Of a stretch of DNA of 64,000 nt, positions 133 through 59,125 are shown one piece after another (the first letter of the stretch is position 1; each line of letters begins with the position of its first letter). The notes under the pieces are model-generated. The model was given only the letters and a program-made list of their open reading frames with translations, was not told where the DNA came from and searched no databases. This DNA is from Lactobacillus sp. UCMA15818 (GTDB lineage Bacteria; Bacillota; Bacilli; Lactobacillales; Lactobacillaceae). Where the stretch lies: contig NZ_VJYB01000002.1 in NCBI RefSeq assembly GCF_030400225.1, positions 376,207-440,206 of the forward strand. Reading direction: 5' to 3'. The position numbers and the translations under genes were made by a program.

Positions 133-225
133 ATAGGGACTGGGTCAAAAGTTAAATTTTGATTCAGTCTCTATTTATTACGAATAACCCTGTTGCATAT
201 TTTGACATTTATGTGCTTTAGAAAT
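133..225 (+). repeat. Interspersed repeat copy 1 (head plus degenerate tail)
   Basis: The head is an inverted repeat (GACTGGGTCAAAA, loop GTTAAA, TTTTGATTCAGTC) at 137-169, followed by T-rich DNA. The tail (ACGAATAA near 180, then a sequence like GACATTTATGTGC) matches the family seen best at 41991-42145 but is decayed. It lies between the partial gene and ppx, which converge, so it probably ends transcription from both sides. Confidence 0.7.
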
Positions 226-6423: not shown

Positions 6424-6657
6424 AAGTGATATCTGAGTTGGTATGATTTCGCGGTAGTGTGCATATTGTGCTTCACTAGGAGAACTTGTAGTCGCCTAGT
6501 TTTGAGAGAATATGTTTATTGTGAATCAATTAAGAGTTGGGGCTGGGTCAAAAGTTAAATTTTGATTCAGCTCCTTTATTTATTCCGTATAAACGTGTTT
6601 CATAAGTCAAAACTCTCCGTCTAACTTTTTTAAGGCAGTACACTTATGGCACACTCC
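6424..6657 (+). repeat. Interspersed repeat copy and flanking intergenic DNA
   Basis: No gene is seen between ddl and tag. The head palindrome (GGGCTGGGTCAAAA, loop GTTAAA, TTTTGATTCAGCTCC) is at about 6540-6574, then the tail with CCGTATAAACGTGTTTCATA, CTCCGTCTAACTT and CACTTATGGCACACTCCC up to 6652. This is a plus-orientation, nearly full-length copy whose head probably terminates ddl. The stretch 6424-6535 may be a further decayed copy in the opposite orientation. Confidence 0.75.
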
Positions 6658-6731
6658 CATCTTTTTTTGTTAGTATTAGAGAAGATAGCTAATTTTTTGC
6701 GTATATTTTTACATGGTGAAGGAGGAATTTG

Positions 6732-7301: not shown

Positions 7302-7409
7302 CCTTATGGGACAAGAATGTAACTTTACAATTCAGAGTAAGAAACATCTCCATTCCAGTACTCTTGAACTAATTTAATTTTGAATTCACATGTATATTTG
7401 GACATAAAA

Positions 7410-7457
7410 AAGTGCTCTATAATAATTAGATTTTTGTCTAACTATTATAGAGCACTT
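7410..7457. terminator. 48-bp palindrome, bidirectional terminator, family with a second copy at 19309
   Basis: Arms of 21 bases (AAGTGCTCTATAATAATTAGA, then TTTTTG, then TCTAACTATTATAGAGCACTT) differ at one pair. A and T runs flank the stem, so it can terminate both tag and the convergent usp operon. An almost identical palindrome, inverted, lies at 19309-19356, so this is a repeated element and not just a local terminator. Confidence 0.8.
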
Positions 7458-7509
7458 TAAGGTTTAAACTTTAACTAGTTTCATAGAAAATTGGATAAAC
7501 TAGCCAACT

Positions 7510-8351: not shown

Positions 8352-8421
8352 CGTCACAATTCCTCACAAACAATATTAGTGTGCGCTGTAATTTTTTGCA
8401 TAGCAAAGAAGTTTATATACG

Positions 8422-8622
8422 CAAAATGAAAGGACTGTGCCAAAACAAACGTTTCAGTACAGCCCTCTCTTCCAAAAATGAACTTTGGAATCCGTCTAAT
8501 GCCGTTAATCGTCTCTGTAGTTGAACCCGCAAACAAGCAGGTGGTTTCTGATAATTCAGCTTCTAACTTCCTACACAACACAGGCATGTTATCTACAGAA
8601 TATTTCAAAAGCCAAGGTATAT
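8422..8622 (-). ncRNA. ssrS: 6S RNA-like (lacto-usp) RNA with its terminator
   Basis: The minus strand folds as a long bulged rod. The outer stem pairs CTTTTGAA with TTCCAAAG and TCTGTAGATAACATGCC with GGCATTAGACGGA. The interior is mostly unpaired. An apical hairpin ACCTGC/GCGGGT lies near 8530-8550. A hairpin with GGGCTGTACTGAAAC against GTTTTGGCACAGTCC (8430-8466) and a T-rich tract ends it. The size near 190 nt, position between rarA and the hypothetical-usp operon, and rod shape agree with 6S RNA; the lacto-usp motif described in this locus is, as I recall, regarded as a 6S RNA. The exact 5' end and promoter are not certain: TATATA at 8618-8623 and TATAAT at 8675-8680 are candidates. Confidence 0.65.
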
Positions 8623-8718
8623 AAGTGTTCGGTCAACCTTACATTGTGAGACAACGCGTACATTTCAGATTATGATTATATATTACCATAGGATTATATT
8701 TTTTTCAAATGTTAACGG

Positions 8719-13327: not shown

Positions 13328-13400
13328 TGTGGGGGGTGGGCCAAAAGTTAAAGTTTGGCCTAACCTCTCTATTTTTCCCGACTTATGTCATACTCTTCCT
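13328..13400 (+). repeat. Compact interspersed repeat copy
   Basis: A head palindrome (GGGGTGGGCCAAAA, loop GTTAAA, GTTTGGCCTAACCTC) is joined directly to the last 20 bases of the family tail (GACTTATGTCATACTC); the middle of the tail is missing. It ends exactly where the 120-bp tandem repeat starts. It probably terminates ezrA. Confidence 0.75.
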
Positions 13401-13687
13401 CAATTTATCTTAGTGCTCAAGAGCTATTCGATGATGATCACACTCAGATTTAAACGTGTTCACATCATCAACTCTTTGCGCCTAAACAAATTGCACACAA
13501 CCACAATCAGGTTGCTTTAGCAATTTATCTTAGTGCTCAAGAGCTATTCGATGATGATCACACTCAGATTTTAAACGTGTTCACATCATCAACTCTTTGC
13601 GCCTAAACAAATTGCACACAACCACAATCAGGTTGCTTTAGCAATTTATCTTAGTGCTCAAGAGCTATTCAATGATGATCACACTCT
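13401..13687. repeat. Tandem 120-bp repeat, about 2.4 copies
   Basis: Units start at 13401, 13521 and 13642, so periods are 120 and 121 bases. The first two copies are identical apart from one extra T, and the third stops after about 46 bases. Each full unit holds two inverted structures: GATGATG...CATCATC, and a nested pair, AAATTGC...GCAATTT around CAACC...GGTTG. Near-identity implies recent duplication or active homogenisation. There is no credible coding frame or SD site. It lies 110 bases before nifZ. Confidence 0.92.
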
Positions 13688-13798
13688 GTTTTCTAAATAT
13701 TTAAAAATTAACTTTGTTTTCAGCAGTATATATTGTAAAATAATTTGCGAGTTTTATTTAAAAAAAAGTATAAATTTTTTGGCATAGGAAGGATAGAA

Positions 13799-19153: not shown

Positions 19154-19159
19154 TAAGGG

Positions 19160-19308
19160 AAATGTGCCATAAGCATAAATTGGGAAAATTTGAGTACCAA
19201 CTAGAAATTACGAACATAGTGGGTTTGCTATGAGTGATTTGAAGCTAGCTGGAGAATCTTGACTTATGAAACATATTTATTTGTAATAGAAAGACTAGAT
19301 TAAAAGTG
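19160..19308 (-). repeat. Interspersed repeat copy, minus orientation, decayed head
   Basis: The reverse complement matches the family tail across about 120 bases: CATAAATATG-type start, CTTATGAAACATATTTATTT, GAAATTACGAACATAGT and GGGAAAATTTGAGTACCAAC on the plus strand. The head near 19288-19305 is only a remnant. It lies in the 428-base gap after valS; the rest of that gap (19357-19582) is AT-rich and shows no gene. Confidence 0.7.
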
Positions 19309-19356
19309 AAGCACTTCATAATAGTTAGACAAAAATCTAATTATTATGGAGTGCTT
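19309..19356. repeat. 48-bp palindrome, second copy
   Basis: Arms AAGCACTTCATAATAGTTAGA and TCTAATTATTATGGAGTGCTT around CAAAAA, followed by T5. Inverted, it matches the palindrome at 7410-7457 at nearly every position, including the same single mismatched pair. It can serve as a terminator for valS. Confidence 0.85.
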
Positions 19357-19582
19357 TTTGTGTAAAATCATTGTGAACATGAAGTATTCTCCTATAGGTT
19401 TGAGTGAAGGTATAGAGATTCTTAATATTATTATAGAGTAAAAAACAATCTATTTTAATTGAAACTAATAGTAATAGCGCAGAGTATTAGTTATTACTTC
19501 ACAAAAAATTCATAAAAACTCTATAAAATTAAGAAGGATAGGACAGTTGCACTTTTTTTGATATAAAGGAGAATTTCATATT

Positions 19583-20561: not shown

Positions 20562-21797
20562 ATGACAAAAAAAGGAAAATTTAAAATAGCTGTTGCGGGA
20601 ACTGGATATGTTGGTTTAAGCATTTCGATTTTATTGGCACAGCGTAATCAAGTTTTTGCAGTTGATATTAATAAAAGAAAAATAGAGCTATTGAATAAGA
20701 AGATTTCGCCAATTGCAGATAAAGAAATTATTGAATATTTGGCATCACATGAATTGGATTTGATTCCGACAACTAATGCAGAGGTAGCCTATAAAGAAGC
20801 TGACTTTGTAGTAATAGCAACACCGACAAATTATGATAGTGAAAAGCAGTTCTTTGATACTTCTTCAGTTGAGCAAGTTATAAAATTGGTAAGACGGTAC
20901 AATAAAGAAGCGATTCTTGTTGTCAAGTCAACGGTTCCTGTAGGATTTACAAAGCGGATCAAGAATGAGCTCAAACTAGAAAATATAATTTTCAATCCAG
21001 AATTTTTACGAGAAAGCAAAGCTTTGTATGATAACCTGTATCCCTCAAGAATTATTATTGGTACTGATATGACAGATAATAAAGAAAGAGCGAATGCACA
21101 GCAATTTGCAAGTCTATTAAAAGCTGGTGCACTTGAACAAGATGTTGCAACGCTTGTAATGGGATATACTGAAGCTGAGGCAGTAAAATTATTTTCAAAT
21201 ACGTATTTGGCATTAAGAGTCAGTTATTTTAACGAACTTGATACCTATGCAGAATCAAAGGAGCTAAATACGCAGCAGATTATCTCTGGTGTTGGTCTAG
21301 ATCCAAGAATTGGTGATGGATACAACAATCCATCTTTTGGCTATGGCGGCTATTGTCTACCTAAAGACACGAAACAATTGCTTTCAAATTATCAGGACGT
21401 TCCACAGAATTTGATTGGAGCAATTGTGAAATCTAATGCAACACGGAAAGAGTTCATTGCGGAGCAGATTATAAGATTCATTAATAAAAATAAACTTGTT
21501 GAGGATACAGTTAATATAGGTATTTATAGGTTAACTATGAAGCAGAACAGTGATAATTTTCGTGAAAGTTCAATTCAAGGTGTCATCAAGGAATTACAAA
21601 AGATCCACCCAGGTATAAAAATTCTGATTTATGAACCAATGTTAAAAGAACATTCTGATTTTCAAGGATACAAAATCGAAAATAATTTACTTGAATTCAA
21701 AAAAAACAGCACTGTAATCGTCGCAAATCGTTTTAATGATGAACTAACAGATGTTCAAACTAAAGTGTATACGAGAGATTTATTTCATCTGGATTGA
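20562..21797 (+). CDS. UDP-glucose 6-dehydrogenase (HasB/Ugd-like)
   Basis: A 411-residue NAD-dependent nucleotide-sugar dehydrogenase, which oxidises UDP-glucose to UDP-glucuronate. The Rossmann loop GTGYVG is at 13-18, VKSTVPVGFT and FNPEFLRESKA follow, and the catalytic Cys265 is in YGGYCLPKDTKQL. The length of about 400 and overall look are those of the HasB/short Ugd branch. ATG 20562 is chosen from AAGAGG/AGAAGG just upstream; a longer reading overlaps the preceding glycosyltransferase. The pair probably forms one operon supplying and using a sugar donor (inference); no capsule operon is next to it. Confidence 0.93.
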   Translation: MTKKGKFKIAVAGTGYVGLSISILLAQRNQVFAVDINKRKIELLNKKISPIADKEIIEYLASHELDLIPTTNAEVAYKEADFVVIATPTNYDSEKQFFDTSSVEQVIKLVRRYNKEAILVVKSTVPVGFTKRIKNELKLENIIFNPEFLRESKALYDNLYPSRIIIGTDMTDNKERANAQQFASLLKAGALEQDVATLVMGYTEAEAVKLFSNTYLALRVSYFNELDTYAESKELNTQQIISGVGLDPRIGDGYNNPSFGYGGYCLPKDTKQLLSNYQDVPQNLIGAIVKSNATRKEFIAEQIIRFINKNKLVEDTVNIGIYRLTMKQNSDNFRESSIQGVIKELQKIHPGIKILIYEPMLKEHSDFQGYKIENNLLEFKKNSTVIVANRFNDELTDVQTKVYTRDLFHLD

Positions 21798-21938
21798 GAC
21801 ACAACATAAATCGGTAAAATTTGGGCACTTTGCTATTAGTAATTTGAAATTAGACGAAAAGATTGATTTATGGAACACATGTATACAGAAGCACTAATGG
21901 GACTGGCTCAAAATTAAACTTTTGATTCGGTCTTTTCC
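21798..21938 (-). repeat. Interspersed repeat copy, minus orientation
   Basis: The tail comes first on the plus strand (GACACAACATAAATCGG, GATTTATGGAACACATGTAT), then the head palindrome (GACTGGCTCAAAA against TTTTGATTCGGTC) at about 21901-21932 with a following TCTTTT. It closes the dehydrogenase gene. The gap on to 22105 also holds the folC promoter. Confidence 0.75.
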
Positions 21939-37428: not shown

Positions 37429-37481
37429 TTTTAAGTATTAAATTTAAGAAGTGGCGGTCTACCAGCTGCAAAAGCTAAAAA

Positions 37482-37523
37482 ATGGGATAGAGGCAAAAAA
37501 TAAAATTTTGTCTCGGTCCCATT
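37482..37523. terminator. Palindrome, bidirectional terminator (repeat-head-like)
   Basis: TGGGATAGAGGCAAAA pairs with TTTTGTCTCGGTCCCA around a short A/T loop. Its size, CAAAA/TTTTG centre and convergent position (PAP2 remnant against HAD gene) match a diverged head of the interspersed repeat. Confidence 0.7.
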
Positions 37524-37549
37524 GATGATGCTATCCAATTTTGAATTGG

Positions 37550-41990: not shown

Positions 41991-42145
41991 ATATAGGGTC
42001 TGGTTCAAAAGTTAAATTTTGAACCAGACCCTATATTATTACGAATAAATGTGTTTCATAAGTCAAAATCCGTCGTCTAACTTCGAATTACTTATAATTT
42101 CGAGTTGGTACTCAAATTTTCCAGACTTATGTCACACTCTCTATA
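41991..42145 (+). repeat. Interspersed repeat, best-preserved copy (reference copy)
   Basis: The head is a perfect 20-bp inverted repeat (41991-42010 with 42017-42036; ATATAGGGTCTGGTTCAAAA and its complement around GTTAAA). The tail starts ACGAATAAATGTG, and CATAAGTC at 42057-42064 pairs with GACTTATG at 42124-42131, with inner AACT...AGTT and CGAA...TTTCG pairs, so it folds as a 75-nt arm. It lies between convergent rsmF and fni and would terminate both. Confidence 0.92.
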
Positions 42146-55237: not shown

Positions 55238-55342
55238 CTGAATTTTCTCCTTAATAGCTAAAACTGGTATTTTTTGAAAAAATTAAATAATAATGGTTAA
55301 CTAGTTAACTATTATGAAATTGTAACTCTTTTTTGTCAAGAA

Positions 55343-55415
55343 ACTTATGAAACACGTTTATACGGAATAAATAAAGGAGCTGCATCAAAATTTAACTTTT
55401 GACCCAGCTCCCTTA
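55343..55415 (-). repeat. Interspersed repeat copy, short, minus orientation
   Basis: CTTATGAAACACGTTTATACGG (55344-55365) is the tail start reversed; the head GGAGCTGCATCAAAA against TTTTGACCCAGCTCC is at 55376-55411. The remainder of the tail is missing. It lies after yidC and before the transporter gene, both read leftwards, and can terminate yidC. Confidence 0.8.
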
Positions 55416-59069: not shown

Positions 59070-59080
59070 GTCTTGAGAGG

Positions 59081-59125
59081 GAAACGGTGCAAAAAGTTAA
59101 ATTTTGATTTGGACTGTTTCTTGAT
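59081..59125 (+). repeat. Decayed interspersed repeat head
   Basis: GAAACGGTGCAAAAAG, then TTAAA, then TTTTGATTTGGACTGTTTC form the palindrome, with a fragment like the tail end (CCCGTTATGT) close by. It lies between the pheST T-box terminator and the pheS ribosome site, so it would be transcribed only when the T-box antiterminates. Confidence 0.6.

What the first reader, a model, noticed from the sequence alone, without database searches (positions are those of the whole stretch)
41991..42145. Interspersed repeat family with a palindromic head and a foldable tail, about 12 intergenic copies
Seen directly: a head palindrome with a conserved CAAAA-GTTAAA-TTTTG centre followed by a tail with ACGAATAAACGTGTTTCATAAGTC and GACTTATGTCACACTC recurs near 135, 4960, 5095, 6540, 13328, 19160, 21800, 33446, 37482, 41991, 55343 and 59081, in both orientations and always between genes. 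The reference copy has a perfect 20-bp head and CATAAGTC/GACTTATG ends that close a 75-nt tail arm. Stem changes in different copies are often compensated (GGACTG, GGAGCTG, AGATC). It behaves like a MITE- or REP-like element recruited as a terminator. A function as RNA or protein-binding site is inference.
Basis: seen in the sequence. Interest (0 to 1): 0.72.

Follow-up and report, generated by a model that had tools for sequence, protein, structure and literature searches.

The report
Mobile element that swaps gene terminators
The repeats are small non-coding mobile DNA elements of lactic acid bacteria that appear to insert by replacing the stop-signal hairpin at the end of a gene with a hairpin of their own, which would explain how so many copies are tolerated.

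Summary
The repeat family is real. Its unit is about 170 bp: a 36-nt palindromic head, a short linker and a long imperfect hairpin body. It occurs in 11 of 14 genomes of the genus, and structural relatives in other Lactobacillales. Both ends resemble the 18-bp terminal repeats of an IS1182-family insertion sequence in the same genome (right 16/18, left 14/18), so it is best read as an IS1182-type MITE. Its insertion looks unusual. Flanks carry an A-tract on the left and a T-tract on the right. Eight species lacking it at the window site have terminator-like hairpins there. Five of 17 IS1182 copies in one relative, and up to five of 24 element copies in another, sit exactly where an older copy's head should be. 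This matches the stem-loop-replacing transposition reported for IS1272. Element-bearing spacers have a predicted terminator in 93/117 cases, but in 39/117 once the element is masked. Best reading: it swaps a host terminator hairpin for its own. Actual termination, and mobilisation by IS1182, are inferred. Rfam and nine literature searches gave no description.

The parts
41996..42031 (+). head of the reference copy: perfect 15-bp stem, 6-nt loop; outer arm is the left end of the element
42032..42050 (+). linker between head and body (ATTACGAATAAA; related motifs in other genera)
42051..42141 (+). body: long imperfect hairpin, GTGTTTCATAAGTC / GACTTATGTCACAC arms; right end resembles the IS1182 terminal repeat; shortened in this copy
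136..225 (+). copy, head and start of body
   Evidence: 55.5 bits
5101..5217 (-). copy
   Evidence: 70 bits
6539..6658 (+). copy; body interrupted by an end of what looks like an IS150-type IS (name recalled, not tested); G002 has a head-like hairpin there
   Evidence: (110.3 bits)
13332..13470 (+). degenerate copy; G002 has an ordinary terminator in the orthologous spacer
   Evidence: (34.8 bits)
19158..19317 (-). copy; outer half of the head is replaced by another palindrome; G002 has an ordinary terminator in that spacer
   Evidence: (92.7 bits)
21795..21934 (-). copy
   Evidence: 66.3 bits
33447..33609 (+). copy; G002 has a head-like terminator hairpin there
   Evidence: (100.7 bits)
55316..55411 (-). 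copy; G002 has an ordinary terminator in the spacer, but the neighbourhood is rearranged
   Evidence: (64.3 bits)
59079..59120 (+). head-like palindrome only, absent from G002; membership not supported by the model
   Evidence: (12.4 bits)
37480..37524 (+). head-like hairpin only; G002 has an ordinary terminator hairpin in the same spacer; probably an ordinary terminator
   Evidence: (18 bits)

Best explanation
It is a non-autonomous mobile element (MITE) with IS1182-type ends that inserts by stem-loop replacement. Shown: the unit (head + linker + body), its IS-like ends, its copies, its place at gene 3' ends, the A-tract/T-tract flanks, and junctions at the edge of a resident copy's head. Inferred: an IS1182-family transposase acts on its ends and on a palindrome as target; the target palindrome, most often the hairpin of an intrinsic terminator or the head of an older copy, is lost and the element takes its place; the element's own head, next to the host's remaining T-tract on one side and its own T-rich linker on the other, restores termination in both directions, so insertion is nearly neutral.
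For: Ends: right end GGGAGTGTGCCATAAGTC is 16/18 and left end 14/18 identical to the IS terminal repeat GGGGCTGTGCCATAAGTC (G010 copies 14/18 and 15/18); that IS encodes a 571-aa protein above the NCBIfam cut-off for IS1182 (306.5 vs 270 bits). Site: in 25 G010 copies (of 28 listed; three with unclear or masked ends dropped) the base at -2 is A in 96%, and T is 60-68% at +1 to +5, against 30% A and 31% T overall; the same pattern flanks 17 IS copies of G005 (18 have both ends, one repeats the flanks of another and was left out). Window site: eight species without the element (G001, G002, G003, G004, G008, G009, G011, G013) show hairpins with A/T tracts, read by eye; in G008 and G011 only the downstream gene is the same; G000 and G005 carry the element in one orientation, G006 and G007 in the other with other DNA beside it, G010 has two, one partly masked, and G012 a rearranged one. 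Replacement: 5 of 17 IS copies abut an element at model positions 36-41, the first bases after the head (L065, L066, L068, L072, L074), and 5 of 24 full G010 copies abut another copy at positions 35-41, two of these with weak scores; chance for 5 of 17 given a head share of 0.0034 is 3e-9. Three G010 tandem units start at positions 33-35 right after a full copy. Terminators: convergent/tandem spacers without an element have a gene-directed predicted terminator in 233/494, element spacers in 39/117 with the element masked and 93/117 unmasked. Place: 63 convergent, 73 tandem, 8 divergent of 144 against 139/559/149 spacers. IS1272, an IS1182-family IS, was reported to replace inverted repeats without target duplication (PMC5678879; abstract, Results parts 1-2 of 3 and passages read).
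Against: Pairing of left and right flanks: the anchored inverted-repeat score beats shuffled pairing only modestly (54/5000), and the unanchored one not significantly (741/5000), in G010. Direct repeats flank three own-genome copies (L005, L012, L027; by eye) and one G005 IS (L062, 21 bp), and the direct-repeat score of the 17 IS copies is raised (154/5000), so other outcomes exist. No strain-level empty/occupied pair was found: in G006/G007 (92-98% identical, about 70 kb) the clear copies are shared, with one 54-bp difference inside a degenerate copy, and the listed plasmid records gave none. Head-edge junctions were not seen in 22 own-genome, 5 G005 and 5 G007 full copies. At the 6539, 33447 and 37482 sites G002 already has head-like hairpins. 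Several element-bearing genomes lack an intact IS1182 gene (G009 has no match at E<=1e-5; G003, G007, G010, G012 only short ones), and only 5 of 16 genomes of other genera with relatives have a PF13751 hit. Identity between own left and right ends exceeds shuffled pairing only weakly (682/10000; 191/10000 thinned).
Confidence: 0.68

Rival explanations
1. An ordinary MITE that inserts nearly at random with short target duplications; copies survive mostly at gene 3' ends, where they do no harm and their hairpin is useful.
For: Three own-genome copies with 8-12 bp direct repeats (by eye); one IS copy with a 21-bp direct repeat; selection would also give convergent enrichment.
Against: Near-identical, hence probably recent, G010 copies already carry the A|T flanks and show no direct-repeat signal (4009/5000 shuffles as high). 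Random insertion plus selection does not explain junctions at model positions 35-41 in up to ten nested cases.
Confidence: 0.15
2. A structured RNA kept by selection for a host role at mRNA 3' ends (processing, stability or small RNA), spread secondarily.
For: Strong covariation across genera (28 of 40 pairs; 19 of 40 on an unfitted alignment); conserved linker and arm-base motifs.
Against: Both orientations relative to neighbouring genes (tandem spacers: G000 18 same/17 opposite, G010 7/13, G005 2/10, G007 4/2), tandem and nested copies; no Rfam match at gathering score. A palindromic transposon body also keeps its pairing if its two ends are recognised alike.
Confidence: 0.1
3. The nested and IS junctions arise by recombination between the short repeats of IS and element heads, and the element itself is immobile today.
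For: Head arm and IS end share 14-15 of 18 bases; an intact transposase is missing from several element-bearing genomes.
Against: The opposite flank of the five IS copies is A/T-tract sequence, not the rest of the head; 16-bp homology is short for recombination (general knowledge).
Confidence: 0.07

Closest known systems
IS1272 and other IS1182-family insertion sequences (stem-loop-replacing transposition, PMC5678879)
   Same: Ends like those of the Liquorilactobacillus IS1182-family IS; loss of a target palindrome; usually no target duplication; several targets downstream of genes
   Different: The element has no gene, is 170 bp, and carries a hairpin head that looks like a terminator and is itself a target for later insertions
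MITEs derived from insertion sequences (for example RUP of pneumococcus; recalled)
   Same: Short, non-coding, IS-like ends, many intergenic copies
   Different: Apparent replacement of hairpins rather than simple insertion with target duplication; two-hairpin architecture conserved across genera
REP/BIME elements with RAYT (recalled)
   Same: Palindromic, intergenic, near gene 3' ends, targets of some IS
   Different: IS1182-type ends; a RAYT link was not searched for
BOX and SPRITE of Streptococcus pneumoniae (recalled; PMC3049150 seen in search listing only)
   Same: Modular foldable intergenic repeats in the same order of bacteria
   Different: Relation not tested by alignment

Membership tests
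MITE of an IS1182-family IS | terminal inverted repeats shared with an autonomous IS | tested here: met
   16/18 right, 14/18 left vs IS end in the own genome; not met in G016, another genus
MITE of an IS1182-family IS | short, not gene-coding, high copy number | tested here: met
   170 bp; 37 model matches above 50 bits in 400 kb of G000; hits in spacers
MITE of an IS1182-family IS | the IS with like ends is of the IS1182 family | tested here: met
   NF033551 306.5 bits, cut-off 270
MITE of an IS1182-family IS | transposase moves the element | not testable with these tools
   needs a transposition assay
MITE of an IS1182-family IS | internal sequence derived from the IS by deletion | not tested
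   body not aligned to the IS interior
Stem-loop-replacing element (IS1272-like) | target is a palindrome and is lost on insertion | tested here: met
   head-edge junctions, orthologous terminators; indirect, no strain-level pair
Stem-loop-replacing element (IS1272-like) | no target-site duplication | tested here: inconclusive
   no signal in 25 G010 copies; three G000 copies and one G005 IS show direct repeats
REP/BIME | associated RAYT (Y1) transposase flanked by the repeats | not tested
   not searched for
Known Rfam RNA family | match to a covariance model at gathering score | tested here: not met
   the window's three gathering-score matches are elsewhere; 13 loci in E-value mode gave six hits, all below gathering score
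Intrinsic terminator | stem followed by a T-rich tract | tested here: met
   predicted in 93/117 element spacers, 39/117 when masked
Intrinsic terminator | terminates transcription in the cell | not testable with these tools
   no 3'-end data

The most novel reading that the evidence does not exclude
An order-wide class of mobile elements spreads by exchanging one hairpin for another: it takes out a terminator stem-loop, puts in its own, and thereby offers a fresh target for the next insertion. Structure rather than sequence is kept over genera and families, so the transposition system would read DNA hairpins, and part of the terminators of lactic acid bacteria would be transposon-made.
Probability: 0.4. 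Interest if true: 0.8.

Novelty: new variant of a known kind. Interest (0 to 1): 0.66.

Why it matters
It would explain how a genome tolerates so many insertions: each one replaces a part with a working part. It makes the stem-loop-replacing mode proposed for an IS1182-family IS testable on many natural events, shows terminators as a mobile and renewable class of site, and gives a ready source of natural terminator swaps for measuring termination strength. If the relatives in other genera are confirmed, a widespread element family is missing from the RNA family library searched here.

Tried and rejected
A strain-level empty site was sought in the close pair G006/G007: the clear copies are shared, no informative insertion. 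Plasmid records with near-identical surroundings (L302 and L304 queries) gave no empty site among the rows listed (40 of 196 records and 2 of 2). Head-only copies as a separate mobile unit: in G010, 23 of 27 heads have a body next to them and the other four show the linker and then N, so not supported there; not settled elsewhere. Known RNA family: no match. Co-variation of left and right ends as proof of shared recognition: too weak. In G016 the head is not IS-like and the element ends do not resemble that genome's IS1182 ends, so the IS1182 link is claimed for Liquorilactobacillus only. The many weak model matches in other families were not all checked; scores near E 1e-4 may be chance, and I ran no shuffled-genome control. 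By eye the left flanks of L100:8291 and L102:19648 also look like headless bodies, but one search does not list them and they are not counted. Literature: nine full-text searches listed no paper that I recognised as describing this element; only open-licence PMC papers are held. PMC5678879: abstract, first two of three parts of Results, and passages; PMC9208149: passages only; all others: listings only.

Full report
What is there. The window's repeat is a unit of about 170 bp with three parts: a palindromic head of 36 nt, a linker of about 20 nt, and a body that folds as one long imperfect hairpin. The consensus begins GGGGCTGGGTCAAAAG and ends GACTTATGGCACACTCCC. The reference copy runs from 41996 to 42141 and is shortened in the body.

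How common. The window lies in a Liquorilactobacillus-like genome: the only plasmid records with a match are of L. hordei and L. nagelii, and all 60 stretches with an exact 41-base pattern are Liquorilactobacillus (records of the window's own genome may be left out there). Of 14 genomes of the genus, own included, 11 hold the element. In 400 kb of the own genome 37 model matches exceed 50 bits; 400 kb of G010, which is L. satsumensis by its contig lengths, has 39 such rows, many of near-equal score and sequence. G002 has almost none (1 profile hit in 220 kb).

Where it sits. Samples of four genomes gave 149 profile hits: 63 in convergent, 73 in tandem and 8 in divergent spacers, against 139, 559 and 149 such spacers; 5 fell in neither class and none was counted inside a called ORF. 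In tandem spacers the median distance to the upstream stop is 20-96 nt and to the downstream start 152-374 nt, by genome. ORF calling was a simple longest-ORF rule.

What it is related to. The own genome has one intact IS with a 571-aa transposase that passes the NCBIfam cut-off for IS1182 and 18-bp ends GGGGCTGTGCCATAAGTC on both sides. The element's right end matches 16 of these 18 bases and the left end 14. A L. hordei plasmid has an IS annotated as IS1182 family within 1 kb of the element. G005 has 18 IS copies with both exact ends, two of them with the same flanks; 17 were used. Several element-bearing genomes have only short transposase matches, and G009 none at E<=1e-5.

How it goes in. 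(a) Flanks: in 25 G010 copies (28 listed, three dropped for unclear or masked ends) the left neighbour bases are A-rich (96% A at -2) and the right ones T-rich (60-68% T at +1 to +5); base frequencies overall are 30% A and 31% T. The 17 IS copies of G005 look alike. Pairing the two flanks of each copy gives an anchored inverted-repeat score above shuffled pairing in G010 (54 of 5000 shuffles as high) and for the IS (110 of 5000); the unanchored score is not significant in G010 (741) but is for the IS (71); the direct-repeat score is not raised in G010 (4009) and is raised for the IS (154), at least in part by one 21-bp direct repeat in L062. (b) Junctions: five of 17 IS copies abut an element whose sequence starts at model position 36-41, just after the head. 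Among 24 full G010 copies, five abut another copy at positions 35-41, two of them with weak scores of 12-14 bits; one further fragment starts elsewhere. The 22 full copies from own-genome stretches outside the window gave one weak fragment that is not at the head edge, and five each in G005 and G007 gave none. Three G010 tandem units begin at positions 33-35 right after a full copy, and in G009 (L039) a headless unit follows a full copy. (c) Window site: eight species without the element have hairpins with A/T tracts there, read by eye, while six have the element or its head, in two orientations; in G008 and G011 only the downstream gene is shared. Across the window, G002 has ordinary terminators in the spacers of 13332, 19158, 41996 and 55316, head-like hairpins at 6539 and 33447, a terminator hairpin at 37482, and nothing at 59079; 21795 is unclear. 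In the automatic comparison, all 6 element-bearing convergent or tandem spacers have a gene-directed terminator in G002, against 11 of 22 without an element (p 0.03); the one element-bearing divergent spacer has none, like the 7 others. For G005 it is 6 of 7 against 18 of 36, with three spacers holding the element in both. (d) In another genus (G016), three of six IS1182-like copies (PF13751) are flanked by perfect inverted repeats of 6-15 bp running into their ends.

What it does there. Convergent and tandem spacers without the element have a predicted gene-directed terminator in 233 of 494 cases. Spacers with the element have one in 39 of 117 when it is masked and in 93 of 117 when it is not. 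So the element supplies the hairpin, and fewer other terminators remain (p 0.004). That these hairpins end transcripts is inferred.

How wide. A model built from 14 sequences of four genera finds matches in 99 of 201 genomes of the family (22 of 40 genera) and in 30 of 148 of an order sample (21 of 49 genera; the sample includes family members) at E<=1e-3, with at most 14 or 19 candidates scored per genome. Outside matches that were read: L263-L271, L273, L281, L282, and the plasmid copies L302 (L. plantarum) and L305 (E. faecium) keep the same two hairpins and an AAACGTGTTCCA- or AAACGGTGTTCCA-type motif while the stems change on both sides. A plasmid search with the L281 copy lists 122 records, 99 of them Enterococcus. 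Of the 11 loci (one from G002 of the own genus), by eye, 10 have at least four A in the last six bases on the left and 6 have at least four T in the first six on the right. On 22 sequences 28 of 40 pairs show changes on both sides, with 93.5% of cells paired and 0 of 500 shuffles as high (alignment fitted to the structure); on the unfitted alignment of 14 it is 19 of 40. The G016 copy read has a head unlike the IS ends, so heads may be exchanged.

Mechanism. The IS1272 study (PMC5678879) found that this IS1182-family member replaces inverted repeats, without target duplication, and proposed that palindromes form a cruciform and are lost. The junctions seen here fit that model for both the IS and the element. 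The most likely course is: transposase acts on the element's ends, joins them at the feet of a target hairpin, and the hairpin is lost. The element's head then stands next to the A- or T-tract left by the target. Because heads are themselves good palindromes, later insertions take out old heads and leave headless bodies. The steps of cutting and joining are inference.

Limits. No strain-level empty site was found, the transposition and termination steps are untested, other outcomes with direct repeats occur, and the IS1182 link is claimed only in Liquorilactobacillus. Nine literature searches and Rfam gave no description; subscription journals and ISfinder were not searched.

Noticed in passing
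window 7407-7458 and 19309-19359: A second palindromic family: two 51-nt hairpins in opposite orientation, 86% alike, AAGTGCTC...GAGCACTT, one of them standing in the head of the 19158 copy of the element.
   Followed up: partly
window 13401-13695: Two and a half tandem copies of a 121-bp sequence (98% alike) directly after the degenerate copy at 13332.
   Followed up: no
L062 1387-3183 (G005) and L304 204-1999 (L. hordei plasmid): IS1182-family IS with the same left flank in both; in L062 with a 21-bp direct repeat, unlike the copies at A/T tracts.
   Followed up: partly
L298 (G016): IS1182-like IS flanked by a perfect 15-bp inverted repeat on both sides, as if it had replaced the loop of a hairpin.
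   Followed up: partly
window 8356-8466, minus strand: Weak model match (24.7 bits, E 6e-4) just downstream of the 6S RNA gene at 8485-8674; head-like hairpin, perhaps an old copy.
   Followed up: no
L195 (G002), about 1491-1608: Headless copy with two symmetric ends and an A-tract on its left, perhaps an older form of the element.
   Followed up: no
L021, L025, L028, L090 (about 2340) and window 6539-6658: Copies whose body is cut by the end of another IS (TGTACTGCCT... end), two of them at contig ends.
   Followed up: no
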